A DNA stretch of 64,000 nt from Microbispora sp. NBC_01189 (GTDB lineage Bacteria > Actinomycetota > Actinomycetes > Streptosporangiales > Streptosporangiaceae): assembly GCF_036010665.1 (NCBI RefSeq), contig NZ_CP108581.1, positions 5,947,501 through 6,011,500 of the forward strand, written 5' to 3'. Positions within the stretch are counted from its first letter, which is position 1; every line of letters starts with the position of its first letter. The notes beneath the pieces were generated by a model. The model did not search any database. It was not told the DNA's origin and saw nothing but the letters and a program-made list of their open reading frames with translations. The translations under genes were made by a program, and so were the position numbers. Below, one piece after another: positions 28,799 through 59,827 of this stretch.

Positions 28799-29899
28799 CG
28801 TGGCGTCCGAGTTCACGGCTTGTCGGAGGGGCGGCACTGGGGCGCCTGCGCGGGCGGCCACGTCTACTCGCCGGCCCTCACCGACTTCACGATCATGGTG
28901 GACGAGGCGTCCCACATGTTCGTCACCGGCCCGGACGTCATCAAGACGGTGACCGGTGAGGACGTGTCCTTCGAGGAGCTGGGTGGCGCCCGCGTGCACA
29001 ACAGCCGCAGCGGCAACGCCCACTATCTCGCCGAGGACGAGGACGACGCGCTGGACTACGCCCGCGCGCTGCTGTCGTACCTGCCGTAGAACAACCTCGA
29101 CGACGCGACGGCCCTGGAGTTCCCGGCGGACCTGGAGATCGGCGAGGGCGATCGGGCCCTCGACACGCTGATCCCCGACTCGGCGAACCAGCCGTACGAC
29201 ATGCACGAGGTCATCGCCGCCCTGCTGGACGACGGCGAGTTCCTGGAGGTGCAGGCGTTGTTCGCGCCGAACATCGTGGTCGGCTTCGGCCGGGTCGAGG
29301 GACGGTCGGTGGGCGTCGTCGCGAACCAGCCGGCCAGTTTCGCCGGGACGCTCGACATCGCCGCGAGCGAGAAGGCCGCGCGGTTCGTGCGCACCTGCGA
29401 CGCGTTCGGCATCCCGGTGCTGACGCTCGTGGACGTGCCGGGCTTCCTCCCGGGCACCGACCAGGAGTGGAACGGCATCATCCGGCGCGGTGCCAAGCTG
29501 CTGTACGCCTACGCCGAGGCGACGGTGCCGCTCGTCGCGGTCATCACCCGCAAGGCGTACGGCGGGGCGTACGACGTCATGGGGTCCAAGCACCTCGGCG
29601 CGGACGTCAACCTGGCCTGGCCCACCGCCCAGATCGCCGTGATGGGCGCGCAGGGCGCGGTCAACATCCTGCACCGCAGGACGCTGGCCGCATCGGACGA
29701 CCCCGACGCACTGCGGGCCGAGCTGGTGCGTGAGTACGAGGACACCCTCGCCACGCCATACCTGGCGGCCGAACGCGGTTACGTCGATGCGGCGATCGCG
29801 CCCCGCGAGACCCGCAGGGAAGTCGTCCGCGCGTTGCGGATGCTGCGCGGCAAACGGGCCGCCCTGCTGCCCAAGAAGCACGGGAACATCCCGCTGTGA
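28799..29899 (+). pseudogene. Acyl-CoA carboxylase beta (carboxyltransferase) subunit, 5'-truncated with an internal amber codon
   Basis: The frame from about 28826 is clearly a propionyl/acetyl-CoA carboxylase beta chain: [40 protein letters not shown], then [53 protein letters not shown], ending KKHGNIPL. About 160 N-terminal residues are absent. At 29087-29089 a TAG interrupts ALLSYLP-stop-NNLDD, where homologues have a serine; TCG to TAG needs one change, and the frame is otherwise unbroken. The 3' part could restart at ATG 29201 but would lack half the active site. Stop at 29897-29899 overlaps the next gene. Confidence 0.85.
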
Positions 29900-30114
29900 C
29901 CGAGTTCCGGGTCATGAAGGGCGCTCCGTCGCCCGAGGAACTGGCCGCGCTGGCCGTGGCGCTGCTCGGGGTGCGGCGGCCCACCACACCCGCCGTACGG
30001 CCGATGCCTTGTGGCTGGCGCGATCTGGCGCGCCGGTCTGGGCTGCGCGGTCCCCTTGCGACCGGTTCCCAGGGGTGGCGTGAGTCGAGATGGAGCCTTG
30101 GAGGACGTCTGTGA
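29896..30114 (+). CDS. Acyl-CoA carboxylase epsilon subunit
   Basis: 72 residues from GTG 29896, which overlaps the beta-subunit stop by 4 bases. It shows the short actinobacterial AccE/PccE pattern: [20 protein letters not shown] near the N-terminus and a C-terminal [19 protein letters not shown] tail. Such peptides stabilise the alpha-beta carboxylase complex. The stop overlaps the start of the alpha-subunit remnant (GTGA at 30111-30114). It looks intact, yet both partner genes here are broken, so its role is doubtful unless partners are encoded elsewhere. Confidence 0.7.
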
Positions 30115-30446
30115 GCACGACCATGCGGAAGGTGCTGGTCGCCAACCGTGGTGAGATCGCCGTCCGGATCGCCCGGGCCTGCCGGGATGGCGGCCTGGCC
30201 AGCGTGGCGGTGTACGCCGACCAGGATCTGGACGCGCTGCACGCGCGGGTGCCGGACGAGGCGCACGCGCTGGGCGGGCAGAGCCCCGCGGAGACGTATC
30301 TGGACATCGCCAAGATCCCGGCGGTGGCCGCGAAGACCGGCGCGGACGCCGTCCATCCCGGCTACGGTTTCCTGGCCGAGAACGCGGACTTCGCCCAGGC
30401 CGTGCTCGACGCCGGCCTGATCTGGATCGGCCCGCCGCCCTTGTGA
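30111..30446 (+). pseudogene. Acyl-CoA carboxylase alpha (biotin carboxylase) subunit, N-terminal fragment
   Basis: From GTG 30111 (ribosome binding site GGAGG upstream) the frame reads [39 protein letters not shown] and [10 protein letters not shown], the standard first 110 residues of biotin carboxylase. It then ends abruptly at TGA instead of continuing with the ATP-grasp domain. Biotin carboxylase chains are about 450 to 660 residues, so roughly 80% is deleted, including all catalytic residues and any biotin domain. A 9-bp hairpin follows at 30452-30475. Confidence 0.85.
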
Positions 30447-30526: not shown

Positions 30527-31483
30527 TCACTCACGCAGCTCCGCAGCCGGACGGCGGGGTGCGCGGGGGACCGCCGGGCCGTACCCGAGCCTCATGATCA
30601 TCTGGATGTGCCCGCGCCGGTGGTGGGGGTCGCTGCGGCGGCGCATGTCGCGCAGATCGAGCGGCTGGTTGAGGAACGAGGCAGAGATGCCGTGGACGGT
30701 CGCGGTCAATAGCAGGCGTTGCAACGCCTGGCCGGCGCGCAGCCAGTCGAGGGGGCCGTCGCCCGCCGTGGTGAGCACCGCCAGCTGGGGAAGGGCCTCG
30801 AAGTGGACCGGCCCACGCTCCCCGTGCGGTCCGAAGTCACGGACCGGCGCCGGGTCGTCGGCGCAGCCGGGCCCCTGCACGTAGGACGGCAGGCCCTCGC
30901 GACGGTTGCCGCTCATCGTCCACGCCCGCAGCTCGGCCTGGTAGTCGCCGTCCTTGGCCAGCTCGTCGTCGGCGATGGCGACGTACTCCAGCAGGTCCGC
31001 CGCGGCGTGCCGGCCGAGCAGGACCAGGCAGGCCCCCTCACAGGAGGCCGCGTGGCGCAGGTCGGCGAGCACCTGCTCGGGAACCCGCCGTTCGCCGAAC
31101 GGCTCCCGGTTGGTCCGGCGCAGGCCGATGCGGTCGTACAGCTCGCGCGTGCGCGCGGAAGCCGGCCGGTACGTCGACACGCGGACGGCGGCCAGGAGCC
31201 GCGGTTCCTCCGCGGTGTTCGGCAGCAGCCAGACCAGGGGCCGGTGACCGGCCGTCCGCACGGCGAGCCGGAGGTTGAACAGGGCCGCGCCACAGCTGAC
31301 GTGCAGCGAGCGCCCGCGGGGGTCGCTGACGCGCAGCCGCCGGTCGGGGTCGGCCAGCAGCTCGGCGAACTCCCCGCGGATCGCTTCGAGCCGCCAGGGC
31401 TGCGTGTTGAGCACCGAGGGCGCCTGCCCGGCGACGGTGAGCAGCCGGTGGAAAGCGCGTTCTGTGGCGAAGGGAGACATCAC
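30527..31483 (-). CDS. Acg-type nitroreductase-family protein
   Basis: 318 residues from GTG 31483 (AAGAAGG upstream; ATG 31480 is an alternative). Two half-domains of the nitroreductase fold can be seen, with APSVLNTQPWRLEA near the N-terminus, LHVSCGAALFNLRLAVRTAGH, LRRTNREPFGERRVP and a C-terminal LLTATVHGISASFLNQPLDL and MIMRLGYGP. This is the pattern of mycobacterial Acg and related FMN-binding proteins, members of the DosR dormancy regulon that appear to sequester FMN rather than reduce nitro compounds. It starts the oxygen-limitation island. I see no strong regulatory box in its own 120-base upstream region. Confidence 0.82.
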   Translation of the reverse strand: MMSPFATERAFHRLLTVAGQAPSVLNTQPWRLEAIRGEFAELLADPDRRLRVSDPRGRSLHVSCGAALFNLRLAVRTAGHRPLVWLLPNTAEEPRLLAAVRVSTYRPASARTRELYDRIGLRRTNREPFGERRVPEQVLADLRHAASCEGACLVLLGRHAAADLLEYVAIADDELAKDGDYQAELRAWTMSGNRREGLPSYVQGPGCADDPAPVRDFGPHGERGPVHFEALPQLAVLTTAGDGPLDWLRAGQALQRLLLTATVHGISASFLNQPLDLRDMRRRSDPHHRRGHIQMIMRLGYGPAVPRAPRRPAAELRE

Positions 31484-31606
31484 GGCGCACCTTCTTCATC
31501 GAGTCTTCTGTGGAGCCCGCGGTCGGCACCCTGAAACAGCGCGACCCAGGCTGGGCGATCAGCGCGACCGCGCGGACCCGCGGTGCGCGCTGGGCCCTCA
31601 GCCTGG

Positions 31607-31924
31607 CTAACGGGTCCGCTTCCGGAGCCGTGCCAGCTCGGTCCGGAGTCTGTCCTGCATCTCGGCGATGGCCCCGTCCATGGTCGCCGCGTCGGCGTGC
31701 GCGTGCAGCGGTTGGCCGTTGACGTCGAGCACCGCCCGCGCGGCGTAACGGTCCGGCGGGGCCAGCCCGGGCGAGTGCTTCAGCGTGACCCGGGCCGCGA
31801 GGATCGGCCTGCCCGTGAAGCGTGCCAGCGCCGCGACGCGCTCGCGCGCCTCGGTGATCGCCTCGGCGGGGACCTGCCCGCTCGTTTCCACCACAACCGC
31901 GTCGGAATCGAATGTCGTGTTCAC
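31607..31924 (-). CDS. HPF/RaiA-like ribosome-associated protein
   Basis: 105 residues. The chain has the beta-alpha-beta-beta-beta-alpha pattern of the S30AE/HPF N-terminal domain: VVVETSGQVPAEAITEARERV, AARVTLKHSPG, YAARAVLDVNGQPLHAHADA, AIAEMQDRLRTELARLRKR. It lacks the C-terminal dimerisation domain of long HPF. Such proteins bind idle ribosomes in stationary phase or hypoxia. Up to three DosR-like boxes lie just upstream of its start (31968-31980, 31982-31996, 32004-32017), supporting hypoxic induction. Cytoplasmic. Confidence 0.7.
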   Translation of the reverse strand: MNTTFDSDAVVVETSGQVPAEAITEARERVAALARFTGRPILAARVTLKHSPGLAPPDRYAARAVLDVNGQPLHAHADAATMDGAIAEMQDRLRTELARLRKRTR

Positions 31925-31967
31925 GCTGCCAGTTTCATGGCCGTGCCGGTCCGGCGGCAGGGCCTGT

Positions 31968-32017
31968 GGGACCGGCCGATGAGGACTTCCGTCGCCAGAT
32001 CGAGGGACTGATCACTC
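31968..32017. promoter_or_regulatory. Tandem DosR-like boxes upstream of the HPF-like gene
   Basis: GGGACCGGCCGAT (31968-31980), AGGACTTCCGTCGCC (31982-31996) and GGGACTGATCACTC (32004-32017) resemble the DosR consensus GGGACTTnnGgCCC to varying degrees and are closely spaced. They lie 44 to 93 bases before the leftward HPF-like start codon. Confidence 0.45.
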
Positions 32018-32221
32018 TTGCCGGGCTTCCCTCCCGCGGAGACCAGGCCGGCGAGGCCGTTGCGCTGCCCGGGCTTCCCGAACCGCCTGGAGCCGGTGCG
32101 ATCGCCGTCGGCGTGAGGCCTGTTCTCGCGTCTCGGGCACCCCGCCTTCCCGCCCCCGCGTCGCCGGGCCCGTGCGGACGCCGGGGGAGAGGGGCCGGAC
32201 CCGGCCGGCGACCGCCGATTC

Positions 32222-32252
32222 GATGACCTTGGTCCTTGGGGGCGGGGTCCTT
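32222..32252. promoter_or_regulatory. Two DosR-like boxes upstream of adhE
   Basis: In reverse orientation AAGGACCAAGGTCATC (32222-32237) and AAGGACCCCGCCCCC (32238-32252) lie head to tail, about 80-110 bases before the adhE start. The first closely matches the box in front of the formate-lyase gene (GGGACCAAAGTCATC). Confidence 0.5.
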
Positions 32253-32330
32253 GCGCAACGGTGCGGGCGCGCCGGCATCAGAAGGATGAAGGTGACAAGC
32301 TGGCCGACCGAGCCCCACGAGGTGATCCAG

Positions 32331-34967
32331 ATGACCGACTCCCCGACCGGAGCCGCCCTGCCCGCCGACGCGCACGCCGCGATCGACACTCTGGTGACCG
32401 GCGCGCTGAAGGCACTGACGGAGTACGAGTCCTTCACCCAGGAGCAGGTCGACCACATCGTCAAGAAGGCGTCCGTCGCCGCGCTGGACCGGCACGCCGC
32501 GCTCGCCCGCCTGGCGGTCGAGGAGACCGGCCGCGGCCTGTTCGAGGACAAGGCGGTCAAGAACATCTTCGCCTGCGAGCACGTGACCCACAGCATGGCC
32601 GGCCTCAAGACGGTCGGCGTGGTCTCCCGCGACGAGATCAGCGGCGTCGTCGAGATCGCCGATCCCGTCGGGGTGGTCTGCGGCGTCACGCCGGTCACCA
32701 ACCCGACCTCGACCACGATCTTCAAGGCGCTGCTGGCGCTGAAGACCCGCAATCCCATCGTGTTCGCGTTCCACCCCGCGGCCCAGCGCTGCAGCGCCGA
32801 GGCGGCCCGGATCGTCCGCGACGCCGCCGTCGCCGCCGGCGCGCCCGAGCACTGCGTCCAGTGGGTCGAGGAACCCTCGCTGGAGGCGACCGGCGCGCTG
32901 ATGCGCCACGAGGGGGTGTCGGTCATCCTCGCCACCGGCGGGAACGCCATGGTCAGGGCCGCGTACTCGGCCGGCAAGCCGGCTCTGGGCGTGGGGGCGG
33001 GCAACGTCCCCGCCTACATAGAGAGGACGGCCAAGCTGCGCCGGGCGGTGCACGACGTCGTGCTGTCCAAGACGTTCGACAACGGCATGATCTGCGCCTC
33101 CGAGCAGGCCGTCATCCTCGACGAGGAGGTCTACGACGCCGCGCTGGGCGAGTTCGCCCGGCTGCACGCCTACGTCGCGACGCCGGAGGAGAAGGCGAAG
33201 CTGGAGGAGTTCGTGTTCGGGGTGTCCGCGCGCGGCGCCTCCTGCTCCGAGGCGAGGCTCAACCCCGACGTGGTGGGGAGGGCTCCGCTCTGGATCGCCG
33301 AGCAGGCGGGTTTCGCGGTGCCGCCGGACACCTCCCTGATCCTCGTCCCGGTGGACGAGGTCGGCCCGAACGAGCCGCTGACCAGGGAGAAGCTCTGCCC
33401 GGTGCTCGCCGTGCTCCGCGCCCGCACCCGGGAGGAGGGCCTGATCCTCGCCGAGCGCATGGTCGAGTTCGACGGCCTCGGCCACAGCGCCGTCATCCAC
33501 ACCGAGGACGCCGCGCTCGCCGAGCGGTACGGCACCAGGGTCAAGGCGGTTCGGGTGATCTGGAACGCCCCCGCCTCCCAGGGCGGCATCGGCGACATGT
33601 ACAACGCGTTCCTGCCCTCGCTGACCCTGGGCTGCGGCAGCTACGGGCACAACTCGGTGTCGAACAACGTCTCAGCGGTCAACCTGATCAACATCAAGCG
33701 GATCGGGCGGCGCAACAACAACCTGCAGTGGTTCAAGGTCCCACCGAAGATCTACTTCGAGCCGAACGCGATCCGCTATCTGGCGGACATGCCGGACGTG
33801 CACCGCGTCACGATCGTCACCGACGCCGTGATGACCCGGCTGGGGTACGTCGACCGTGTCTCCGACGTGCTGCGGCGGCGCGGCGAGCGGGTGGCCCTGC
33901 AGATCATCGACGCCGTGGAGCCCGAGCCGAGCGTGGCGACCGTCGACAAGGGCGCCGACCTCATGCGCGCCTTCCGCCCCGACACGATCGTCGCTCTCGG
34001 CGGCGGCTCGGTGATGGACGCGGCCAAGGTGATGTGGCTGCGCTACGAGCACCCCGAGGTCGTCTTCGCGGACATGAAGGAGAAGTTCTTCGACGTCCGC
34101 AAGCGAGCCTTCCGCTTCCCCGCCCTGGGCGAGCGCGCCCGTCTGGTGTGCGTGCCGACCACCTCGGGCACGGGCGCCGAGGTCACGCCGTTCGCCGTGA
34201 TCAACGACACCGCGACGGGCAAGAAGTATCCGCTGGCCGACTACGCGCTGACCCCGAGCGTCGCGATCGTGGACCCGGTCCTCGCCGCCGACCTGCCCCG
34301 GGTGGTCACCGCCGACAGCGGCTTCGACGCCCTCACCCACGCCATCGAGTCGTACGTGTCGGTGTACGCCAACGACTTCACCGACGGCCCCGCCCTGCAC
34401 GCCATCCGGATCATCTTCCGGTATCTGGAGCGCGCGGTCACCCGCGGCGCCGCCGACCCGGAGGCCAGGGAGAAGATGCACAACGCCGGCACGATCGCCG
34501 GCATGGCCTTCGGCAACGCCTTCCTCGGGATCGTGCACGCCATGTCCCACACGCTCGGCGCCACGTTCCACGTGGCCCACGGGCGCACGAACGCCGTCCT
34601 GCTGCCGCACGTGATCCGCTACAACGGCACCGTCCCGTCGAAGCTGTCGGGGTGGCCCAAGTATGAGGACTACCGCGCTCCCGAGCGGTTCCAGGAGATC
34701 GCCCAGATGCTGGGCCTGCCCGCGGCCACGCCGGCCGAGGGGGTCGAGTCGCTCGCCGCGGCGGTCGAGCGCCTGCGCGACGCGGTCGGGATCGAGCGGT
34801 CGTTCCGGGACATCGGCGTCGACGAGAAGGCGTTCCTCGACGCGCTCCCGCAGCAGGCGCTCAACGCGTACGAGGACCAGTGCGCGCCGGCCAATCCCCG
34901 CATGCCGATGCTGGAGGACATGCAGGCGCTGATGCGGGCCGCCTACTACGGGCGTTCGCAGGAGTAG
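32331..34967 (+). CDS. adhE: Bifunctional acetaldehyde-CoA / alcohol dehydrogenase
   Basis: 878 residues. ATG 32331 is chosen because GAGGTG lies 7 bases upstream and it gives the normal family length; the longer frame from 32172 runs through the boxes. The N-terminal half is a CoA-acylating aldehyde dehydrogenase with the catalytic cysteine in NGMICASEQAVILD. The C-terminal half is an iron-dependent alcohol dehydrogenase (VALGGGSVMDAAKVMW; DALTHAIESYVSVYANDFTD; GNAFLGIVHAMSHTLGATFH, with the metal histidines). It reduces acetyl-CoA to ethanol with two NADH, typically under anaerobiosis, and fits with the formate-lyase genes nearby. Forms spirosomes in other bacteria. Cytoplasmic. Confidence 0.93.
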   Translation: MTDSPTGAALPADAHAAIDTLVTGALKALTEYESFTQEQVDHIVKKASVAALDRHAALARLAVEETGRGLFEDKAVKNIFACEHVTHSMAGLKTVGVVSRDEISGVVEIADPVGVVCGVTPVTNPTSTTIFKALLALKTRNPIVFAFHPAAQRCSAEAARIVRDAAVAAGAPEHCVQWVEEPSLEATGALMRHEGVSVILATGGNAMVRAAYSAGKPALGVGAGNVPAYIERTAKLRRAVHDVVLSKTFDNGMICASEQAVILDEEVYDAALGEFARLHAYVATPEEKAKLEEFVFGVSARGASCSEARLNPDVVGRAPLWIAEQAGFAVPPDTSLILVPVDEVGPNEPLTREKLCPVLAVLRARTREEGLILAERMVEFDGLGHSAVIHTEDAALAERYGTRVKAVRVIWNAPASQGGIGDMYNAFLPSLTLGCGSYGHNSVSNNVSAVNLINIKRIGRRNNNLQWFKVPPKIYFEPNAIRYLADMPDVHRVTIVTDAVMTRLGYVDRVSDVLRRRGERVALQIIDAVEPEPSVATVDKGADLMRAFRPDTIVALGGGSVMDAAKVMWLRYEHPEVVFADMKEKFFDVRKRAFRFPALGERARLVCVPTTSGTGAEVTPFAVINDTATGKKYPLADYALTPSVAIVDPVLAADLPRVVTADSGFDALTHAIESYVSVYANDFTDGPALHAIRIIFRYLERAVTRGAADPEAREKMHNAGTIAGMAFGNAFLGIVHAMSHTLGATFHVAHGRTNAVLLPHVIRYNGTVPSKLSGWPKYEDYRAPERFQEIAQMLGLPAATPAEGVESLAAAVERLRDAVGIERSFRDIGVDEKAFLDALPQQALNAYEDQCAPANPRMPMLEDMQALMRAAYYGRSQE

Positions 34968-35010
34968 CGGCCCCTCTCCGGTGTGTGCGTACACCGCGAG
35001 GGCTTAGCGT

Positions 35011-35658
35011 ATGGGCATGATTCGTGTGTTCCTGGTGGACGACCACGAGGTGGTCCGTATGGGTGTCGCGGCGCTGCTGGAGGCCGAGGACGACATCGAG
35101 GTCATCGGCGAGGCGGGGACGGCCGAGTCGGCCGTGGCCCGCATCCCCGCGCTGCGGCCCGATGTGGCGGTGCTCGACGTACGCCTGCCCGACGGCAACG
35201 GCGTGGACGTCTGCCGGGAGGTGCGCTCGAAGGTGCCCGGCCTGGCCTGCCTGATGCTGACCTCCTACGCCGACGACGAGGCGCTGTTCAACGCGGTCAT
35301 GGCCGGCGCGGCCGGCTACGTGCTCAAGCAGATCCACGGCTCGGACCTGGTCGGCGCGGTGCGCACGGTGGCCGCCGGGCAGTCGCTGCTCGACCCGCAG
35401 ACCACGGCCGCCATGCTGCACCGGCTGCGCGACCAGGCCACGAAGAAGGACCCGCTGGCCGCCCTGTCGGACCAGGAGCGGCAGATCCTTGAGTTGATCG
35501 GCGAGGGCCTGACCAACCGCCAGATCGGCGAGCGGATGTTCCTGGCCGAGAAGACGGTCAAGAACTACGTGTCCACCCTGCTGAGCAAGCTCGACATGCA
35601 GCGCCGCACCCAGGCCGCCGCGCTCGCCGCCCGCCTCAAGGCCGAACACCAACAGTGA
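35011..35658 (+). CDS. DosR/DevR-like response regulator (NarL family)
   Basis: 215 residues from ATG 35011 (GAGGG at 34999-35003; ATG 35017 is possible). The receiver domain has the acidic cluster in FLVDDHE, phospho-acceptor Asp in [13 protein letters not shown], the conserved Thr/Ser in LMLTSYADD and Lys in YVLKQI. The C-terminal LuxR-type helix-turn-helix reads [26 protein letters not shown], and the following [24 protein letters not shown] is very close to the DosR recognition region. It converges with a DosS-like kinase gene and is the probable reader of the GGGAC boxes in this island. Confidence 0.88.
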
Positions 35659-35773
35659 CGTAGCGCAGACCTGCCGAACGATGTCACTGTCACCGCGGTC
35701 AAGCTCGACAGACGCATCAGGGAACGTACCGCAACAGCGGAGGCCGGCGGCGTCCGCACGCGGCATGAGGTGA

Positions 35774-38308
<2,535 letters not shown>

Positions 38309-38322
38309 TCAGTGCGGACTGC

Positions 38323-38760
38323 CTGGGTGACCTGTTCGTGGTGCGCACCGCGGGCCACGTGATGGGCGCGGAGGTGCTGGGCAGCATCGAGTACGGGGTG
38401 GACGTGCTGGACTGCCCGCTGGTGGTTGTCCTCGGCCATGACTCGTGCGGCGCGGTGGGCGCCGCATGCGCCGCGCTGGAGGACGGGATGGCGCCGACCG
38501 GCTACGTCCGTGACGTCGTCGAGCGTGTGACGCCCAGCGTGCTCGCGGCGCGGGCGGCAGGTCGTGTGGAGGCCGACGAGATCCTGGCCGAGCACATACG
38601 GCACACCGTCGACTTGCTGTTGGACCGCTCTCGGGTGCTCGCCGAACGGGTCGGCGCCGGTCGGGCCGCCGTCGTGGGCCTGTGCTACCGCCTGGCCGAC
38701 GGCAGCGCCCAGGTGGTGGCGGCCCGCGGCCTCGAAGTCCCCGCCGGCTCCGCATCCTGA
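38323..38760 (+). pseudogene. Beta-carbonic anhydrase, N-terminally truncated
   Basis: The homologous part starts at LGDLFVVRTAGHV and continues LGSIEYGVDVL-CPLVVVLGHDSCGAV, then a helical C-terminus with VVGLCYRLADGSAQVV. HDSC carries the second zinc cysteine and the zinc histidine, but the preceding CxDSR segment with the first zinc ligand and catalytic Asp-Arg pair is absent. The sequence in its place is the promoter-like stretch with DosR-type boxes. The open frame back to GTG 38224 runs through that stretch and is unlikely to be translated as such. A deletion appears to have fused a hypoxic promoter to this gene body. Not a working enzyme. Confidence 0.75.
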
Positions 38761-38902
38761 CCGGGGCGAGAGGCTTCGCCATGGCTACCGGTTGAGCCGT
38801 CCTCGGCGTGACATTCGTCGTCCTGCCCCCGTCGTGGCGTCGTCCCCGCCGCCTGCGAGGAGGGCGGGATGGACGGCGTACGCCACCGATCCGCTGTGGG
38901 CG

Positions 38903-39226
38903 TCAAGGACGCCACCAACGACGGTGGACGGGACAGGACACGACCACGTGCGCCACCGCTGCTTCGCCGCAGACGGCCCGGTACGCCTCACGGGCGGTGG
39001 TGCGGATGCGTTCCGGGCATGCCGAGGTGGCGGGGCGGATGGACACGTAGACGTGCGCCATGCCGTCGACCTCCGCCAGGCGGACGTCGTCCACCACGTC
39101 GGTGAACGCCTTCTCCAAGGCCTCCCGCACCGCGAGCCGCGTGAGCGGACCCGTGGCCTGTTCCCGATCTTCCTTGTCGTTGCGTCGCCGGGGGATCAGA
39201 GGGGGTTCGGTGCTCAGGATCGTCAT
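38903..39226 (-). CDS. Small protein of unknown function with a DosR-like box in its promoter
   Basis: 107 residues from ATG 39224-39226 (GTGGAG just upstream). Sequence: a charged N-terminus (RRRNDKEDREQATG), an amphipathic helix AVREALEKAFTDVVDDVRLA, a beta strand MAHVYVSIRP, then CPERIRTTAREAYRAVCGEA and AHVVVSCPVHRRWW. Three cysteines. No family recognised; the alpha-beta-beta pattern could be a small ligand- or RNA-binding fold. A strong box GGGCCGAAGGTCCC lies 37 bases upstream, and the gene is placed just after the formate-lyase activase gene, so it belongs to the island. An open frame extending to 40024 is a shadow of the activase gene. Confidence 0.6.
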   Translation of the reverse strand: MTILSTEPPLIPRRRNDKEDREQATGPLTRLAVREALEKAFTDVVDDVRLAEVDGMAHVYVSIRPATSACPERIRTTAREAYRAVCGEAAVAHVVVSCPVHRRWWRP

Positions 39227-39262
39227 GGCTCCACCGTCTCGCCGGCCGCCCCTGCCCGGGGA

Positions 39263-39276
39263 GGGCCGAAGGTCCC
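39263..39276. promoter_or_regulatory. DosR-like box GGGCCGAAGGTCCC
   Basis: Reverse complement GGGACCTTCGGCCC, differing from the box at 38277 by one base. It lies 37 bases before the small leftward gene and 43 bases after the stop codon of the activase gene. Confidence 0.6.
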
Positions 39277-39318
39277 CGGACCACCCGACGGTCGTCGGCT
39301 TCCGAGAGGCGGCACGAG

Positions 39319-40104
39319 TCAGACGCTGGTGACGCCGTGCGCGGCGAACTGGGCGTGCACGCGCTCCAGCAGGGCCCGGTCCGGGGGCCTGACCTCGGCC
39401 AGGGGGAAGGCGAGCCCGAGCCGGGCGTACTTGCCGGCGGCCATGCGGTGGAAGGGCAGCACGTCGACCCGTTCGACGTTGCCGAGCGTCGCGACGAACC
39501 GGGCGAGGCCGTCGACGTTCTCCTCGGCGTCGGTGTGGCCGGGGACCAGGACGAACCGCACCCAGACCGGGCGGCCCAGGTCGGCCAGCCGGCGGGCGAA
39601 GCGCAGGGTCGGCTCCAGGTGTGCCCCGGTCAGCCGCCGGTAGCCCCCCGGGTCGTACGACTTGATGTCGAGCAGCACGAGGTCGGTGTCGGCCAGCAGC
39701 GCGTCGCTCGCGCGGTCGCCGAGGTATCCCGAGGTGTCCAGCGCGGTGTGCAGGCCGCTGTCGTGGCAGCGGCGCAGCAGCTCGCCGGTGAAGCGGGGCT
39801 GCAGCAGCGGTTCGCCGCCGCTGACCGTCACCCCGCCGCCGGCGACGGAGATGAAGCGGCGGTAGCGGTCCACCTCGGTCATGACCTCGTCCACGGTGAC
39901 CCCGCGGCCGTCGCGCATGCGCCAGGTCTCGGGGTTGTGGCAGTAGAGGCAGCGCAGCGGGCAGCCGCAGGTGAACACCACGAAGCGGGTGCCGGGACCG
40001 TCCACGCCGACCGACATGTCCCACGACTCGATGACGCCGGCGCCCGCCGCCGGCTCCGAAGCGCAGAGCTCGGCGGCGGCGTCCTCCAGCAGCCGGTCCC
40101 GCAT
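39319..40104 (-). CDS. pflA: Pyruvate formate-lyase activating enzyme
   Basis: 261 residues; ATG 40102-40104 overlaps the formate-lyase stop (TGATG arrangement), so the two are coupled. It is a radical SAM protein with the cluster motif CGCPLRCLYC (CxxxCxxC), followed by HNPETW as in PflA, then GGGVTVSGGEPLLQ (SAM-binding GGE), DTSGYLG, VLLDIKSYDP and VWVRFVLVPGHTD. The [4Fe-4S] enzyme cleaves SAM and abstracts hydrogen from the glycine of formate-lyase. Oxygen-sensitive, so it acts in hypoxic cells. Cytoplasmic. Confidence 0.92.
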   Translation of the reverse strand: MRDRLLEDAAAELCASEPAAGAGVIESWDMSVGVDGPGTRFVVFTCGCPLRCLYCHNPETWRMRDGRGVTVDEVMTEVDRYRRFISVAGGGVTVSGGEPLLQPRFTGELLRRCHDSGLHTALDTSGYLGDRASDALLADTDLVLLDIKSYDPGGYRRLTGAHLEPTLRFARRLADLGRPVWVRFVLVPGHTDAEENVDGLARFVATLGNVERVDVLPFHRMAAGKYARLGLAFPLAEVRPPDRALLERVHAQFAAHGVTSV

Positions 40105-42377
40105 CACAGCCGCCCGTGGAAGGTGCGGTCGATCACGTCCTGCTGCTGTTCGCGGGTGAGCCGGACGAAGTTCACGGCGTAGCCGGAGACCCGGATCGTG
40201 AGCTGCGGGTACTTCTCGGGATGGTCCATCGCGTCGATCAGCGTGGCCCGGTCGAGCACGTTGACGTTCATGTGGAAGCCGCCCGCGTCGAAGTAGCCGT
40301 CGAGCACGCCCACCAGGTCGGCGACCCGGTCGCCGGCCGTACGGCCCAGCCCCTCGGGGGTGACCGTGCTGGTCAGCGAGATGCCGTCCTGCGCCTGGTC
40401 GTAGGGGAGCTTGGCGACCGACAGCGCCGAGGCGACCAGGCCGTGCCGGTCGCGGCCGTTCATGGGGTTGGCGCCGGGGGCGAACGGCGTGCCGGCCCTG
40501 CGCCCGTCCGGGGTGTTGCCGGTGTGCTTGCCGTACACCACGTTGGAGGTGATGGTGAGCACCGACTGGGTGTGCTCGGCGCCCCGGTAGGACGGGTGGC
40601 GGCGGATCTTGTCCATGAACGACCGCACCAGGTTCACCGCGATGGCGTCGGCGCGGTCGTCGTTGTTGCCGTACGCCGGGTAGTCGCCCTCGACCACGTA
40701 GTCCACGGCCAGCCCGCTCGCGTCGCGGATCACCCGGACGGTCGCGTGCTTCACGGCCGACAGGCTGTCGGCGGCCACCGACAGGCCCGCGATGCCGCAG
40801 GCGAGGGTGCGCTTGACGGGGTAGTCGTGCAGCGCCATCTCGACGCGCTCGTAGGCGTACTTGTCGTGCATGTAGTGGATGACGTTGAGCGCGTTCACGT
40901 ACGTCTTGGCGAGCCAGTCCATCATCCGGTCGAACGCCGCCGCGACCTCCTCGTAGTCGAGCACGTCGCCGGTCACCGCCGGGTGGGCCGGGCCGATCTG
41001 CTCGCCGGTCATCTCGTCCCGCCCGCCGTTGATCGCGTACAGCAGGGCCTTGGCGAGGTTGACCCGCGCGCCGAAGAACTGCATCTGCCTGCCGACGGGG
41101 GCGGCCGAGACGCAGCAGGCGATGGCGGTGTCGTCGCCGTACGCCGGCCGCATCAGCTCGTCGCTCTCGTACTGGATGGAGCTGGTCTCGATGGACAGCC
41201 CGGCGCAGAAGCGCTTGAACGGCTCGGGCAGCCGCGGCGACCAGAGGACGGTCAGGTTCGGCTCCGGGGCCGGGCCGAGGTTGCGCAGCGTCTGCAGGTA
41301 GCGGTAGCTGGTGCGGGTGACCAGCGGCCTGCCGTCGGCGCCGATGCCGCCGATCGACTCGGTCACCCAGGTCGGGTCGCCGGAGAAGAGCTGGTCGTAC
41401 TCGGGGGTGCGCAGGAAGCGGACGATGCGCAGCTTGACGACGAAGTCGTCGACGAGCTCCTGGGCCTCCTGCTCGGTGAGCCGGCCTTCGGCGAGGTCCC
41501 GCTCCAGGTAGACGTCCACGAAGGTGGAGGTGCGGCCCAGCGACATCGCCGCGCCGTTCTGTTCCTTCACGGCGGCGAGGTAGGCGAAGTACAGCCACTG
41601 GATCGCCTCGTGGGCCGTCGCGGCGGGGTGGGAGATGTCGTGGCCGTAGGAGGCGGCCATGGTCTTCAGCTCGCCGAGCGCGCGGATCTGCTCGGCCAGT
41701 TCCTCCCGGTCGCGGATGACCGCGTCGGTGGAGAACTCCCCGTCGAGCGAGCGCAGTTCGGCCCGTTTGGCCTCGACCAGCCGGTCCACGCCGTAGAGGG
41801 CGACGCGCCGGTAGTCGCCGATGATGCGCCCGCGGCCGTACGCGTCGGGCAGGCCGGTGACGACCCCGGCGCGGCGGGCCGCCCGGATCTCGGGGGTGTA
41901 GGCGTCGAAGACGCCGTCGTTGTGCGTCTTGCGATATTTCGTGAAGATCTCCTTCACCTGCGGGCTGAGCGTGTACCCGTAGGCGGCGAGGCCGTTCTCC
42001 ACCATCCGAAGCCCGCCCGCCGGCATGATGGCCCGCTTCAGCGGGGCGTCGGTCTGCAGGCCGACGATCAGCTCCCGGCCCCGGTCGATGTAGCCGGGCC
42101 GGTGCGAGGTGATCGAGGAAGGGGTGGCGGTGTCCACGTCGTACACGCCGCGCCGGCGCTCCTCGGGGAACAGGTCCGACACCTCCGCCCACACCGCGCG
42201 GGTCCGCTCGGTCGGGCCGGCCAGGAACGACTCGTCGCCCTCGTGCGGCGTGTAGTTGGCCTGGATGAAGTCGCGCACGTCCACCCGCTCGCGCCAGGCC
42301 ATGCCGCGGAAGCCGCGCCACGCCTCATGCGCGGCTTGCCGCGCGGTCTCCTGTGCCCTGACCGCTGTGACCGTCAT
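40104..42377 (-). CDS. pflB: Pyruvate formate-lyase (glycyl radical enzyme)
   Basis: 757 residues from ATG 42375-42377, preceded by GAGAGGGG; a longer frame to 42410 lacks a good start. The adjacent active-site cysteines are in [20 protein letters not shown]. The glycyl-radical loop near the C-terminus reads [18 protein letters not shown], with the radical Gly in SGY. Other family blocks are [13 protein letters not shown] and [19 protein letters not shown]. It converts pyruvate and CoA to acetyl-CoA and formate without releasing electrons. Followed by its activase. A box GGGACCAAAGTCATC stands 85 bases upstream. PFL is not widespread among soil actinomycetes. Confidence 0.94.
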
Positions 42378-42461
42378 CGCCGTCCCCTCTCGCTCGTTCC
42401 GCCGCTTCAACTGTCGCCGCCGCCGTCGCCCTGCCTCTGCGAGCGGAGGTCATCGATCACG

Positions 42462-42476
42462 GGGACCAAAGTCATC
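42462..42476. promoter_or_regulatory. DosR-like box upstream of pflB
   Basis: GGGACCAAAGTCATC, matching the adhE-upstream box (GGACCAAGGTCATC) at 13 of 14 positions over the shared part. It lies 85 bases before the leftward pflB start. Confidence 0.6.
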
Positions 42477-42508
42477 CGGGGGGTGGAAGGGGACGGGCGG
42501 GGACCTTG

Positions 42509-44268
<1,760 letters not shown>

Positions 44269-44415
44269 CGGCCGGAGCAGCCGACGAGGCTCAGGACCGT
44301 ACAAGCCGTATCGAGACGTCTTTCCGTCCCCGCCTGCGTCCGCGGAGCTCTGCCCGCGCGGGCGCCGCGGGAGGACGCGGAAAGCCCGGTGAAAGACATC
44401 CCAGGAGCTTAGATG

Positions 44416-45423
44416 TCAAGCAGCGACCGATTCGGGGTGGCTGGACCACGCGGTGGCTTCGTCGTAGAGGGTTCCGGTCTTGAGGCACCCGTGCAGGATG
44501 CCGACGAGGCGGTTGGCGACCTGACGCAGCGCTGTGTTGTAGTCGGCGTCGCGGGCGCGTTGCCTGTCGTAGTAGGCGCGGGCGCCGGGAGAGAAACGGA
44601 TGGCGGCAGCTGCCTGGGTGATCAGGGCGTCGATCAGGCGGTCGTTGTGCACGAAGCGGGCGGCGATGACCTTCTTCTTGCCCGAGGCGCGGGTGATCGG
44701 GCTGGTGCCGGCGTGGTTCTTGCGGGCCTTGGCCGAGGTGTAGCGGTCGGGGTCGTCACCGAATTCTGCGAGCACCCGGGCGCCGAGGACCGCTCCCAGC
44801 CCGGGCTGGGAGCAGATGATCTCAGCGGCCGGGTGTCGGCCAAAATGCGCCTCGACCTCCTTGTGCAGGGCGGTGACCACCTCAGGCCGGCTCAACTGTT
44901 CGGTGCGCAGCGCGGCCTGGATGGGCGAGGCCTTGGCAGCCAGATCGCCTCGGCGGCCGGCGCGTTTGAGTGCCGACGCAGCGAGTGCCGCAGCCGTTGG
45001 GTATGGCGGGTACGTTCCCAGATCAGCGTCTTGTGCATCCGGGCCACGACCTTGACCGCCTCGGCTTGCGGGCTGTCGCCGGCCACCGGCCGCAGCTGGT
45101 GGGAGTCCGTGCGGAACGCTCAGCCGTTCCCGGTAGCGGGCGGCCTGCAGCGGGTTGACCGCATACACCGTGTACCCGGCGGCGACCAGCGCCGCCACCC
45201 ACGGCCCGCGGTCGGTCTCGATCCCGATGATCACCTCCGCCTCTTCGGCCTCCTCGCCAAGTTGCTCGCCGATCATGGCGTGCAGCCGGGTCATCCCTGC
45301 CACACCCTCCGGCAGCCGCGCCTTGGCCAGGCGCCGGCCCGAGGCGTCCATCAGCTCCACATCGTGGTGCGCCTCGGCCCAGTCATCTCCCACGAACAGT
45401 CGCAATGTCTCTCCCGGTTCCAA
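44416..45423 (-). pseudogene. IS110-family transposase, internally deleted
   Basis: The leftward frame starts RLFVGDDWAEAHHDVELMD (DEDD RuvC-like part; VIIGIETDRGPWVAALVAAG) and ends with the second IS110 domain (ICSQPGLGAVLGARVLAEFG; KNHAGTSPITRASGKKKVIA). Between them YRERLS jumps out of frame into sequence that, read in another frame, gives VRTDSHQLRPVAGD and AVKVVARMHKTLIWERTR; the conserved GAKSDxxDAxxLAD segment with a catalytic Asp is missing. A second shift restores the frame near LAAKASP. The product would be inactive. No clear element ends or target duplication are seen, as is usual for IS110. Confidence 0.82.
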
Positions 45424-45558
45424 CAGCGCTGGTCAGCAGCCTGCGGGAGAACCATCAGCGACCTAATGAAGCAGTGCTCACGCCGACAGCGGGCGGGCAC
45501 GACATCCCATCAGCGATCAACTCTCCCGGCCGACCGGCAAGGGCACGATCTTTCACCA

Positions 45559-45590
45559 GGACTCGGGGTCCAGGAGGGACAAGTGCTCAC
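45559..45590. promoter_or_regulatory. Putative DosR-like boxes upstream of the zinc alcohol dehydrogenase
   Basis: GGACTCGGGGTCC (45559-45571) and GGGACAAGTGCTCAC (45576-45590) lie 70-100 bases before the ATG. They match the island consensus less well than the boxes at 38277 or 39263. Confidence 0.35.
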
Positions 45591-45657
45591 TTACCGGCGG
45601 CTACCAGGCACCGAGTCTGCCGGATGGCGACTCGCTAACACTCATGAGGAGAAGGCA

Positions 45658-46668
45658 ATGCGTGCAGCGGTGGTCACCCGGTTCGACAACCCGATCGAGA
45701 TTCGTGACGTTCCGGTGCAGGAGCTGCGGCCCGGCCAGGTGCTGGTCCGCATCGAGGCAAGCGGACTGTGCCACACCGACATCCACGCCGCCCGCGGCGA
45801 CTGGCCGATCAAGCCGGCTCTGCCGTTCACGCCCGGACATGAGGGCATCGGCGTGATCGAGCAGGTTGGCGCCGGCGTCACCGGCCGGGCCGTGGGGGAG
45901 CGGGTTGCGGTCCCATGGCTGGGCTACGCCTGCGGCATCTGTGACTACTGTGTGAGCGGGCGCGAGACGCTCTGCGAGCACCAGCTGAACACGGGCTACA
46001 GCCTGAACGGCTGCCACGCCGAATACGTCGCCGCCTACGCCAGTCATGTGGTGCCCGTGCCCGAGGCCGTGAACTCGTTCGACGCCGCTCCTCTCACCTG
46101 CGCCGGGGTCACCACGTACAAGGCCGTCAAGGTCTCCGGGCTGCGCCCGGCCGAGCGCGCGGCGATCTTCGGCATCGGCGGGCTGGGGCATCTGGCGCAG
46201 CAGTACGCGCAGATCTTCGGCGCCGAGACCGTCGCGGTCGACGTGACGGGCGAAAAGCTCCTCCTCGCCGGTGAACTCGGCGCCACTCACGTCGTCAACG
46301 CCGCGGCCGACGACCCGGTGGCCGCGATTCGCGACCTGGGCGGTGCCGACGTGGCCGTCGTCCTGGCGGCCGACCCGCGCGTCCTGCAGCAGGCGCACGC
46401 GTCGCTGCGTCGGGGCGGACGCCTGGTGCTGGTCTCGCTGCCCCGGGACAACGCAATGTCCCTGCCCGTCTTCGAGACGGTGCTGGGCGGCATCAGCGTG
46501 ATCGGGTCCATCGTCGGCACCCGCGCCGACCTGGCAGAGGTCTTCCGCCTGCACGCCGCCGGCCGCACGACCGTGAAGTACGAGATCCGCAAACTCGACG
46601 ACATCAACCAGTCCTTCGAGGACATCCTCGCCGGCCGTATCCCCGCCCGGCTGGTCTTCGAGCTGTGA
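45658..46668 (+). CDS. Zinc-dependent alcohol dehydrogenase
   Basis: 336 residues from ATG 45658 with GAGGAGAAGG upstream. It is a medium-chain dehydrogenase: catalytic zinc ligands in SGLCHTDIHAARGDW and TPGHEGIGVIEQVG, structural zinc cysteines in CGICDYCVSGRETLC, and the NAD-binding loop GIGGLGHLAQQYA. It is closest in pattern to AdhP/AdhA ethanol-active enzymes. It would complete reduction of acetaldehyde to ethanol, or run in reverse, alongside AdhE. The preceding 230 bases hold possible DosR boxes and the 5' flank of the IS110 remnant. Confidence 0.92.
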   Translation: MRAAVVTRFDNPIEIRDVPVQELRPGQVLVRIEASGLCHTDIHAARGDWPIKPALPFTPGHEGIGVIEQVGAGVTGRAVGERVAVPWLGYACGICDYCVSGRETLCEHQLNTGYSLNGCHAEYVAAYASHVVPVPEAVNSFDAAPLTCAGVTTYKAVKVSGLRPAERAAIFGIGGLGHLAQQYAQIFGAETVAVDVTGEKLLLAGELGATHVVNAAADDPVAAIRDLGGADVAVVLAADPRVLQQAHASLRRGGRLVLVSLPRDNAMSLPVFETVLGGISVIGSIVGTRADLAEVFRLHAAGRTTVKYEIRKLDDINQSFEDILAGRIPARLVFEL

Positions 46669-46757
46669 GACGACCATGACCACCCTCGATTCCCGGCCCG
46701 TCCCTGCCGCCTCGCCGTCCTGGCCCACCTGACGCGGGCACTTCCCCGGCGACAGGC

Positions 46758-46773
46758 CACTCCGATCGGAGTG
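46758..46773. promoter_or_regulatory. 16-bp perfect palindrome CACTCCGATCGGAGTG
   Basis: It lies between the alcohol dehydrogenase and P-type ATPase genes. With no loop it is more like a protein-binding site than a terminator. Function unknown. Confidence 0.4.
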
Positions 46774-46805
46774 CCGGTCTCACGGTGAACGGTCTCCGGC
46801 GGCCT

Positions 46806-46839
46806 GGGCCGAAGGTCCTCCGGCGGGATGCCTTTGGCC
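46806..46839. promoter_or_regulatory. DosR-like box(es) upstream of the P-type ATPase
   Basis: GGGCCGAAGGTCCTC (46806-46820; reverse complement GAGGACCTTCGGCCC) matches the box at 39263 over 13 bases. A weaker second site, GGGATGCCTTTGGCC, is at 46825-46839. They are 40-70 bases before the ATG at 46879. Confidence 0.55.
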
Positions 46840-46878
46840 TGCGGCCTTCCCGTACAGCCGAATGATCTGCTTGGGGGC

Positions 46879-49395
46879 ATGGAGATCAGCGTGCGAGAGC
46901 CGGCCGGACTGAGCGCGGAGGCGGCATCGGAGCGGCTGGCCGAGTACGGGCCGAACGAGTTCCCGCAGCCGAGGCCGCCACGCCTGCCCGTCCGGGCCGC
47001 CCGCCAGCTCGCCGACCCCATGTCGATCCTGCTGCTGACAGCCGGACTGGTCACCCTGGTCGTCCTCGGCGAGGTTCCCGAGGGAGCGGCGATCTTGACC
47101 ATTCTCCTGGTCAACGTGGTCATCGGGGTGAGCCAGGAGACGAAGGCCGACCATGCCGTACGGGCGTTGCGCACCCTCACCGCGCCCATGGCCAAGGTCG
47201 TCCGCGACGGCGTCGTACGGAGGGTTCCCGCCGCCGAGGTCGTACCCGGCGATGTCGTGCAGGTCGCGGCCGGAGACCGCGTTCCCGCCGACGCGCGGCT
47301 GTCGCAGGCGAACGCCCTGGGCGTGGACGAGTCCATGCTCACCGGAGAGTCGCTGTCGTCCGACAAACGGGCCGCGGAAGCGGTCGGAGCCGGCGGCACG
47401 CTCGCCGACCGCCGTGACGAGTTGTTCGCCGGGACGCTCGTCGTCCGGGGTTCGGGGGTGGCCGAGGTGACCCGGACCGGCGCCCGCACCGAGATGGGGC
47501 GCATCGCCTCCGCGCTGGGCGGCGGCGTCAAGGGCCCGCTGGCGGTGGAACTCGCACAGGTGTCGCGGCGGATCGGCCTGGTCGCCGTCATGGCGGGTGC
47601 GGTGATGATCCTCATCGGACTCACCCGGGTCCAGCGGGGCGAGGCCACGCTCCTCGACATCATCCTGGCCGGGGTGGCGCTGGCCATCGCCGCCGTGCCG
47701 GAAAGCCTGGCCGCCGCCGTGACCACGGCACTGGCGCTCGGCTCACAGCGCATGGCGACGCTCGGTGTGATCGTCCGGCGGCTGCCGGCCATCGAGGCGC
47801 TCGGCGCGACCACCGTCATCGCCACGGACAAGACGGGAACGCTGACCACCGGGCATCTGACCGTGGCCGACCAGGTGGCGGTGTCCGGAAGCGACCTGTG
47901 GCGTGCCGCGCTGCGCTGCAACGACGCCCGCGACGGGCTCGGGGACGCGGTCGACGTGGCCCTCGCCGTGGCCGCCGAGCGGCACGGGACGAGGCTGCCG
48001 CCCGACGAGGAACGCCTGGCCGCCCGGCCGTTCGACGCCGAGACGAGGTCGATGGCCGTGATCACCGCGGCCGGCGAGGGCGTTCCTCTGCTGACGGTCA
48101 AGGGCGCCCCGGAGGTGGTGCTCGCCCGGTGCGTTCCCGGCCCGGAGACCGAGCGGCTGGCACGAGCGGTGCCCGGTCTGGCGGACCGGGGCCTGCGGGT
48201 GCTCACGCTCGCCGACAAGCACACTGACGACCTGGACGCCACAGGGCTGCGTCCGCTGGGCCTGGTCACGCTCAGCGACGAGATCCGGCCCTCGGCGGCG
48301 CGGGCGGTGGCGGACTGCCGCGCCGCCGGCATCCGCGTGGTGATGGTGACCGGCGACCACGCCGACACCGCCCGCGCCATCGCCGAGGAGGTGGGCATCG
48401 ACGCCGACCCTGTGGTGACGGGCGCCGAGCTCCAGACCCTCGGAGATTCGGACGGCGATCGTTCGAAGCGGTCCGCCCGGCTGCGCGAGGCGGCCGTGCT
48501 GGCCCGCGTCGACCCCGCCACCAAACTCGACCTCGTACGCGCCCTGCGTGCGGACGGCCAGGTCGTGGCGATGACCGGCGACGGCGTGAACGACGCCCCG
48601 GCGCTGCGCAACGCGGACGTGGGGGTGGCCATGGCCGGGGAGGAGGGAACGGACGTGGCCAGGGAGGCCGCCGCCGTCGTCGTCACCAACGGCGACCTCG
48701 GCACCATCGTCGCAGGGGTGCGCGAGGGACGCCGGCTCCGCCACAACGTCGCCTCGATGGTCGGATATCTGCTCACCGGCAACCTCGCGGAGATCCTGAT
48801 CGTCCTCACCGGCCTGATCGCCTGGCCGGATCTGGTCGTGCCGCTGCTTCCCGTGCAGTTGCTGTGGATCAACCTGGTGCTGGACGGCATCCCCGCCATC
48901 GCGCTCGGCGTCGACCGGCCCGCCGGCGACCCGCTGGCACTGCGCCCTTGCACCGGAGGTCTGCTCTCCTGGCCGGTCCTGACCCGGATCGCGCTGCGAG
49001 CGGTGGCCGTAGGCGCGCTCGTCTTCGCGGCCGTCGAGGTCGCCCGCCGCCTCGGCTGGAGCGAGGAACAGGTCCGCAGCCAGGCCGTTCTCGCGCTGGT
49101 CTTCGCCCGCTTGACCCTCGCCTACGTCGTCAGGGCCCGCCGCCGGACCTTCGAGCGCGGCTGGTGGCGGGGCCGTGCTGTAATGGTCGCGGTGACCGCC
49201 GCCGCGGCGCTGCAGGTGCTCGTGACGGTGATTCCGGCGCTGGGCGCGCCGCTCGCGCTGGTGCCTCTGCCACCCGCAGGCTGGGCGATGGCGCTGGGCG
49301 CCGCCGTACTCTCGGCCCTGGCGTGCGACATGGTGCGCTCCAACCGGAACGGCAGCGGCCATACGGTCCAGGGTCGGCCCCCACGCGGTGCGTAG
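46879..49395 (+). CDS. P-type cation-transporting ATPase (PII, CtpF-like)
   Basis: 838 residues from ATG 46879 (GGGGG upstream; the frame opens at 46828 but that would run through the regulatory boxes). Motifs: an N-terminal cation-ATPase domain (LSAEAASERLAEYGPNEFP), TGES in the actuator domain, PES in the fourth membrane helix (AIAAVPESLAAAVT), DKTGTLT phosphorylation site, VTGDHADTARAI and TGDGVNDAPALRNADVGVAM hinge, and C-terminal helices. This is the Ca2+/Na+-type PII group. In mycobacteria CtpF is DosR-controlled, and a matching box is present here. It probably exports cations under hypoxia; the ion cannot be named. Confidence 0.9.
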   Translation: MEISVREPAGLSAEAASERLAEYGPNEFPQPRPPRLPVRAARQLADPMSILLLTAGLVTLVVLGEVPEGAAILTILLVNVVIGVSQETKADHAVRALRTLTAPMAKVVRDGVVRRVPAAEVVPGDVVQVAAGDRVPADARLSQANALGVDESMLTGESLSSDKRAAEAVGAGGTLADRRDELFAGTLVVRGSGVAEVTRTGARTEMGRIASALGGGVKGPLAVELAQVSRRIGLVAVMAGAVMILIGLTRVQRGEATLLDIILAGVALAIAAVPESLAAAVTTALALGSQRMATLGVIVRRLPAIEALGATTVIATDKTGTLTTGHLTVADQVAVSGSDLWRAALRCNDARDGLGDAVDVALAVAAERHGTRLPPDEERLAARPFDAETRSMAVITAAGEGVPLLTVKGAPEVVLARCVPGPETERLARAVPGLADRGLRVLTLADKHTDDLDATGLRPLGLVTLSDEIRPSAARAVADCRAAGIRVVMVTGDHADTARAIAEEVGIDADPVVTGAELQTLGDSDGDRSKRSARLREAAVLARVDPATKLDLVRALRADGQVVAMTGDGVNDAPALRNADVGVAMAGEEGTDVAREAAAVVVTNGDLGTIVAGVREGRRLRHNVASMVGYLLTGNLAEILIVLTGLIAWPDLVVPLLPVQLLWINLVLDGIPAIALGVDRPAGDPLALRPCTGGLLSWPVLTRIALRAVAVGALVFAAVEVARRLGWSEEQVRSQAVLALVFARLTLAYVVRARRRTFERGWWRGRAVMVAVTAAAALQVLVTVIPALGAPLALVPLPPAGWAMALGAAVLSALACDMVRSNRNGSGHTVQGRPPRGA

Positions 49396-55761: not shown

Positions 55762-59827
<4,066 letters not shown>

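What the first reader, a model, noticed from the sequence alone, without database searches (positions are those of the whole stretch)
30527..49395. A DosR-like oxygen-limitation island with shared GGGAC-type boxes
Nitroreductase (Acg type), HPF-like protein, AdhE, DosR-like regulator, DosS-like kinase, DoxX, pyruvate formate-lyase and activase, CBS-BON protein, zinc alcohol dehydrogenase and CtpF-like ATPase are packed in 19 kb. Near-palindromic boxes are found before HPF, adhE, doxX, the 107-residue protein, pflB and the ATPase, and weakly before the alcohol dehydrogenase. GGGACTTTCGGCCC (38277), GGGACCTTCGGCCC (39263, reverse), GAGGACCTTCGGCCC (46806, reverse) and GGGACCAAAGTCATC (42462) are clearly related. 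The layout suggests one regulon read by the local response regulator and including fermentation enzymes.
Basis: partly seen in the sequence, partly recalled or inferred. Interest (0 to 1): 0.7.

Follow-up and report, generated by a model that had tools for sequence, protein, structure and literature searches.

The report
Oxygen-limitation switch controlling fermentation genes
An actinobacterium carries a compact gene island in which a DosR-type low-oxygen regulator, known from dormancy in mycobacteria and Streptomyces, probably switches on fermentation enzymes (pyruvate formate-lyase and AdhE) through a conserved DNA box, and similar boxes sit before pyruvate formate-lyase genes in many other actinobacteria.

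Summary
The boxes are real. Matrices built only from other genomes, leaving out the gene tested, score four of five boxes above all 339,745 background positions (symmetric form), and the five are the best five sites of the 64-kb window. HPF rests on conservation alone. The boxes match the published OsdR site type; the local regulator keeps the DNA-contact residues of DosR, the kinase the haem-site His and Tyr of DosS. So this is a DosR/OsdR-type regulon whose unusual cargo is fermentation (PflB, PflA, AdhE). DosR-like boxes precede pflB in 28 of 43 actinobacterial loci against 2 of 37 others. I found no paper linking PFL to DosR/OsdR in the open-access library. The island here is reduced: a relative also has narK/narG-like, Hsp20, USP and hemerythrin genes in it. 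A second DosR, 97% identical, could read the same boxes, so 'local regulator' is unproven. Binding and induction by hypoxia are inferred.

The parts
30527..31483 (-). Acg-family FMN oxidoreductase (nitroreductase), downstream of HPF on the same strand, no own box
   Evidence: NF047509 above cutoff
31607..31924 (-). short HPF-like protein (Ribosomal_S30AE)
   Evidence: Pfam above cutoff
31981..31996 (.). HPF box GAGGACTTCCGTCGCC; weakest of the six by matrix
   Evidence: 14-base core identical in 5 of 5 aligned; score 9.7
32222..32237 (.). adhE box (reverse AAGGACCAAGGTCATC), about -108 from the likely ATG
   Evidence: 9 of 9 copies; leave-one-gene-out
32331..34967 (+). adhE, bifunctional acetaldehyde-CoA/alcohol dehydrogenase; start chosen where homologues begin
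   Evidence: NF010378 above cutoff
35011..35658 (+). DosR/DevR-type response regulator, 43 bp after adhE, no own box
35774..37489 (-). DosS/DosT-type kinase GAF-GAF-HisKA_3-HATPase
   Evidence: no Pfam or NCBIfam match; 74% identical gene at second locus
38276..38291 (.). box TGGGACTTTCGGCCCG before the doxX-like gene, about -130
   Evidence: 12 of 13 copies
38224..38760 (+). beta-carbonic anhydrase lacking the N-terminal part found in a relative
   Evidence: Pro_CA
38903..39226 (-). 107-aa orphan protein
   Evidence: 10 of 15 genus genomes, 1 weak of 22 others
39262..39277 (.). box of the 107-aa gene (reverse GGGGACCTTCGGCCCT), about -50
   Evidence: 7 of 7 plus 5 of 5 copies
39319..40104 (-). 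pflA, PFL-activating radical-SAM enzyme
   Evidence: TIGR02493 above cutoff
40104..42377 (-). pflB, pyruvate formate-lyase
   Evidence: TIGR01255 above cutoff; ACCVS and RVSGYAVNF read
42461..42476 (.). pflB box GGGGACCAAAGTCATC, about -98
   Evidence: 12 of 12 genus copies
42509..43315 (-). CBS-CBS-BON protein, no convincing box
43385..44268 (+). gap gene (GAPDH) with a 103-base gap relative to three relatives; frame broken
44416..45423 (-). IS110-type transposase
   Evidence: Pfam
45658..46668 (+). zinc-type alcohol dehydrogenase; upstream DNA unlike relatives, no box
46805..46820 (.). ATPase box (reverse GAGGACCTTCGGCCCA), about -73
   Evidence: 5 of 5 copies
46879..49395 (+). P-type cation ATPase (CtpF label not tested)

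Best explanation
The island is a DosR/OsdR-type oxygen-limitation regulon adapted for fermentation. When oxygen leaves the haem of the kinase's first GAF domain, the kinase phosphorylates DosR (the local copy, the copy at 2.76 Mb, or both). Phospho-DosR binds near-palindromic GGGACC-type boxes 50-131 bp before HPF(-nitroreductase), adhE(-dosR), doxX-like(-dosS), the 107-aa gene, pflB(-pflA) and the cation ATPase. PflB/PflA and AdhE then balance redox by making formate and ethanol, while HPF idles ribosomes. As adhE leads into dosR and the doxX-like gene into dosS, the switch would amplify itself. Shown by computation: gene content, box conservation, shared motif, conserved sensor and DNA-contact residues. 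Inferred: haem binding, phosphorylation, DNA binding, induction by hypoxia, operon structure, products.
For: Conserved boxes; leave-one-gene-out matrices; forward test, 5 of 5 unlinked 107-aa genes boxed at -51; match to published OsdR sites; equivalents of Asp54, Lys179, Lys182, Asn183 in the regulator; haem-site His and Tyr in 10 of 10 kinase copies; box before a narK-like gene in two related islands; pflB boxes across Actinobacteria 28 of 43 against 2 of 37 (independent published matrix 16 of 43 against 2 of 37).
Against: No binding or expression data. The published OsdR matrix shows no window-wide excess and ranks adhE, pflB and HPF boxes low. Sites in other genomes were picked with window-like cores, 2-3 mismatches allowed, so the matrices are not fully blind. 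Acrocarpospora (L001) has close PflB but no upstream box. With the genus matrix, pflB boxes do not track close DosR homologues (22/32 against 6/10, p=0.44).
Confidence: 0.8

Rival explanations
1. The boxes are DosR sites but are read mainly by the second DosRS pair near 2.76 Mb; the island pair is a redundant copy.
For: Second DosR 97% identical, own dosS and boxed doxX-like gene. In several relatives the island dosS is missing or fragmentary, and in G011 and G009 no island dosR was seen.
Against: In the window both island genes are intact and keep key residues.
Confidence: 0.3
2. Another oxygen or redox regulator (Rex or FNR type) controls adhE and pflB; the boxes matter little for them.
For: Rex controls such genes in other Gram-positives (abstract in listing). 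FNR-like matches exceed shuffles in the window: 15 against 2.84 expected.
Against: The one Rex-like match is at 58236, outside the island; the four FNR-like matches inside the island lie in coding sequence. Operator patterns were recalled.
Confidence: 0.07
3. The boxes are chance GC-rich palindromes.
For: Loose patterns are common; no window excess with the published matrix.
Against: Fixed-place conservation, leave-one-gene-out scores, forward test.
Confidence: 0.02

Closest known systems
OsdR/OsdK regulon of Streptomyces coelicolor (PMC5069765)
   Same: Same regulator/kinase type and box type (published sites include CGGGACCTTCGGCCCT and AGGGACCTTCGGCCCC); nitroreductase and pyridoxamine-oxidase-like targets; clustered round the regulator
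   Different: Its Table 1 has no PFL or AdhE, and 'formate' and 'fermentation' do not occur in its main text
DosR/DevR regulon of Mycobacterium tuberculosis (PMC4082495, passages; otherwise recalled)
   Same: Regulator matches over its length; kinase GAF-A domain matches DevS/DosT; Acg nitroreductase
   Different: Fermentation enzymes in place of the narK-, USP- and Hsp20-type genes, which a relative's island has
Anaerobic PFL/AdhE fermentation systems of other bacteria (recalled)
   Same: Enzymes PflB, PflA, AdhE
   Different: Apparently under a haem two-component dormancy system rather than FNR/ArcA or Rex

Membership tests
DosR/DevR/OsdR response regulators | receiver plus LuxR-type DNA-binding domain, best solved relative DevR over nearly full length | tested here: met
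   (272 bits, residues 3-211)
DosR/DevR/OsdR response regulators | phospho-Asp54 and contact residues Lys179, Lys182, Asn183 | tested here: met
   Asp56, Lys181, Lys184, Asn185 (roles from passages)
DosR/DevR/OsdR response regulators | binds the box when phosphorylated | not testable with these tools
   needs protein
DosS/DosT haem kinases | GAF-GAF-HisKA_3-HATPase with proximal His and distal Tyr | tested here: met
   His and Tyr, and DosT-like Gly, in 10 of 10 copies
DosS/DosT haem kinases | haem binding and gas response | not testable with these tools
   needs protein
OsdR/DosR regulon | several promoters with the palindromic box, clustered at the regulator | tested here: met
OsdR/DosR regulon | boxes score highly with the published OsdR matrix | tested here: inconclusive
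   doxX-like 10.0, 107-aa 15.6, ATPase 8.9 do; adhE 0.7, pflB 1.5, HPF low
OsdR/DosR regulon | classical members USP, Hsp20, narK in the island (recalled hallmark) | tested here: not met
   no room for them in the window where relative G012 has them
OsdR/DosR regulon | induction by hypoxia through the regulator | not testable with these tools
   needs expression data
Pyruvate formate-lyase system | PFL and activase above curated cutoffs; Cys-Cys and glycyl-radical motifs | tested here: met
   TIGR01255 and TIGR02493; motifs read by eye

The most novel reading that the evidence does not exclude
Pyruvate formate-lyase is a widely shared target of DosR/OsdR-type systems across Actinobacteria: the 'dormancy' regulon is at root an oxygen-gated fermentation switch, and mycobacteria carry a version that lacks the fermentation part.
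Probability: 0.4. Interest if true: 0.7.

Novelty: new variant of a known kind. Interest (0 to 1): 0.5.

Why it matters
DosR is studied as the dormancy switch of mycobacteria, and streptomycetes are described as unable to grow without oxygen despite many anaerobic genes, the 'anaerobic paradox' (passage of PMC5069765). If the same switch commands an oxygen-killed glycyl-radical enzyme plus AdhE, survival without oxygen may be fuelled by fermentation, which is directly testable by measuring formate and ethanol in dosR mutants. It also yields a set of candidate pflB promoters in other genera and a genus-specific orphan protein as a candidate new regulon member.

Tried and rejected
The M. tuberculosis 20-mer consensus (recalled) did not separate the boxes from background. 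The published OsdR matrix ranks only three of the six boxes well. A first genome pattern used a wrong 15-base spacing; its 92 matches (control 140) serve only as an off-spacing count. A loose 14-base pattern was too common. Rex and FNR operators (recalled patterns) gave no island promoter match. The pflB box tracks a close DosR homologue only with the published matrix. The 107-aa protein: Pfam FeS_assembly_P below cutoff in 3 of 7 members; single-sequence fold, pLDDT 71.8, no PDB match at E<=0.001, top hit an Fe-S assembly-associated protein at E=0.012; no function claimed. A dosR/dosS tree without printed support values puts the window DosR apart from its genome's second copy; not pursued.

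Rows dropped: tblastn hits under 62% identity (over 50% kept for HPF and the 107-aa protein); L001 and L002 left out of the alignments; one dosR row at a contig end (G005_C40) left out of the matrices; L023 not held, so not but. One search was given 22 of the 43 actinobacterial loci. The background was 17 stretches of 20 kb of the 7.37-Mb genome. One search examined 30 of the 31 matches.
Full report
WHAT IS THERE. The window is G000:C1:5947501-6011500 of a one-contig 7.37-Mb genome. Its PflB is closest to those of Acrocarpospora and Sphaerisporangium (84%), so the host is probably one of the Streptosporangiaceae (inference; it was not named). Genes from 30527 to 49395: Acg nitroreductase, HPF-like, adhE, dosR, dosS, doxX-like, truncated carbonic anhydrase, a 107-aa protein, pflA, pflB, CBS-BON, broken gap, IS110-type transposase, zinc alcohol dehydrogenase, P-type cation ATPase. 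The DoxX label is not confirmed by Pfam or NCBIfam; the CtpF label was not tested. PflB, PflA, AdhE and the Acg protein pass curated NCBIfam cutoffs.

THE BOXES. The four quoted boxes are at the stated places; two more lie before adhE (32222) and HPF (31981). In upstream regions of orthologues, window included, the pflB box is found in 12 of 12 copies, adhE 9 of 9, ATPase 5 of 5, 107-aa gene 7 of 7, doxX-like 12 of 13 (one degenerate; copies at the second locus and one from another genus included); the HPF core is identical in 5 of 5. Forward test: five copies of the 107-aa gene lie away from pflB in other genomes; 5 of 5 have the box at -51. Two of these five regions are near-identical, and in one (L209) the genus matrix prefers a further site at -178.

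MORE THAN CHANCE. For each gene a matrix was built from the other genes, using other genomes only. Background positions scoring as high as the window site, of 339,745: symmetric matrix 0 (107-aa), 0 (ATPase), 0 (pflB), 0 (adhE), 13 (doxX-like); plain matrix 0, 0, 14, 11, 93. With all genes in the matrix these five are the five best sites of the window. The HPF site was not in this test and scores 9.7. Training sites were found with window-like cores, so the test is not fully blind. A strict core pattern has 31 matches in the genome (reversed control 57), 4 in the island where an even spread would give 0.08 (by hand). Two others precede the second doxX-like gene and a pyridoxamine-oxidase-like gene. 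My simple frame caller put 24 of the 30 matches examined inside open frames, some of them over-extended. Against: no window-wide excess with the published OsdR matrix, and loose patterns are common.

THE PROTEINS. The regulator matches M. tuberculosis DevR over residues 3-211 (272 bits) with equivalents of Asp54, Lys179, Lys182 and Asn183 (roles from passages of PMC4082495). The kinase's first GAF domain matches DevS and DosT structures; His137 (haem ligand position), Tyr159 (distal position) and a DosT-like Gly are kept in 10 of 10 copies.

CONTEXT. Of 41 genomes, PflB occurs in 11 of 15 of the genus, 0 of 10 from other genera of the family, and 1 of 16 more distant ones (a 57-residue fragment). 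The island of relative G012 also holds hemerythrin, USP, Hsp20 and an MFS (narK-like) gene by Pfam and narGHJI-like genes (label by eye); a strong box precedes the narK-like gene in G012 and G004. The window genome gives only three weak NarG hits and one 53% relative of the Hsp20 elsewhere. A second dosR, 97% identical, with its own dosS and boxed doxX-like gene lies near 2.76 Mb. Of the 22 dosR loci listed, 11 have an own box between -30 and -46; the window copy and the second copy do not, and the window copy follows adhE by 43 bp.

BEYOND THE GENUS. Within 200 bp upstream of pflB, sites better than 95% of dinucleotide shuffles occur in 28 of 43 actinobacterial and 2 of 37 other loci (genus matrix), and 16 of 43 and 2 of 37 (published OsdR matrix); adhE, 9 of 11 and 6 of 11. 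Among 42 actinobacterial genomes split by presence of a close DosR homologue (58% identity or more, cutoff mine), boxes are 17/32 against 1/10 with the published matrix (Fisher p=0.017) and 22/32 against 6/10 with the genus matrix (p=0.44). So the link is broad but its dependence on DosR is not settled.

HOW IT LIKELY WORKS. Low oxygen activates the haem kinase, phospho-DosR binds the boxes, and fermentation (PflBA, AdhE), ribosome hibernation (HPF) and a cation ATPase are induced, with positive feedback since adhE leads into dosR and the doxX-like gene into dosS. Each biochemical step is inferred; which DosR copy acts is open.

PRIOR WORK. OsdR of S. coelicolor controls an overlapping regulon with the same box type (PMC5069765: outline, section 7 and passages seen); its Table 1 has no PFL or AdhE. 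Searches of the open-access library (listings only) showed no paper linking PFL to DosR/OsdR. Three papers hold both 'pyruvate formate' and 'DosR'; I saw only their listings. Subscription papers are not covered.

VERDICT. A real DosR/OsdR-type regulon with an unusual fermentative cargo: a new variant of a known kind, with a wider, testable claim about PFL in Actinobacteria.

Noticed in passing
38903-39226: The 107-aa protein is an orphan nearly confined to the genus (10 of 15 genomes; 1 weak of 22 others), also present in two genomes without PFL, and boxed in all 12 copies looked at.
   Followed up: partly
43385-44268: The gap gene lacks 103 bases present in three relatives, which breaks its frame; intact copies exist in relatives.
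   Followed up: partly
38224-38760: Carbonic anhydrase without the N-terminal part that relative G012 has (256 aa there); in this family that part holds zinc ligands (recalled). The doxX-like box lies inside this frame.
   Followed up: partly
28724-30446: Fragments of a carboxyltransferase and the N-terminal domain of a biotin carboxylase just left of the island, apparently broken genes.
   Followed up: no
L113 5006-8290 (about G000:C1:2760006-2763290): Second doxX-like/dosS/dosR locus, 81-92% identical in DNA to the window.
   Followed up: partly
L188 1499-1955 (about G000:C1:2792368): A pyridoxamine-oxidase-like gene (PF12900) with a strong box CGGGACCTTCGTCCCT about 35-50 bp upstream.
   Followed up: partly
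L113 5049 and window about 38232: A second palindrome (TGCCGTACGGCTC) 44 bp downstream of the doxX-like box in most genus copies, one base off in the window.
   Followed up: no
L134, L135, L138, L152, L153: In several relatives the island dosS is missing or in fragments while another dosRS locus or dosR copy exists in some of them.
   Followed up: no
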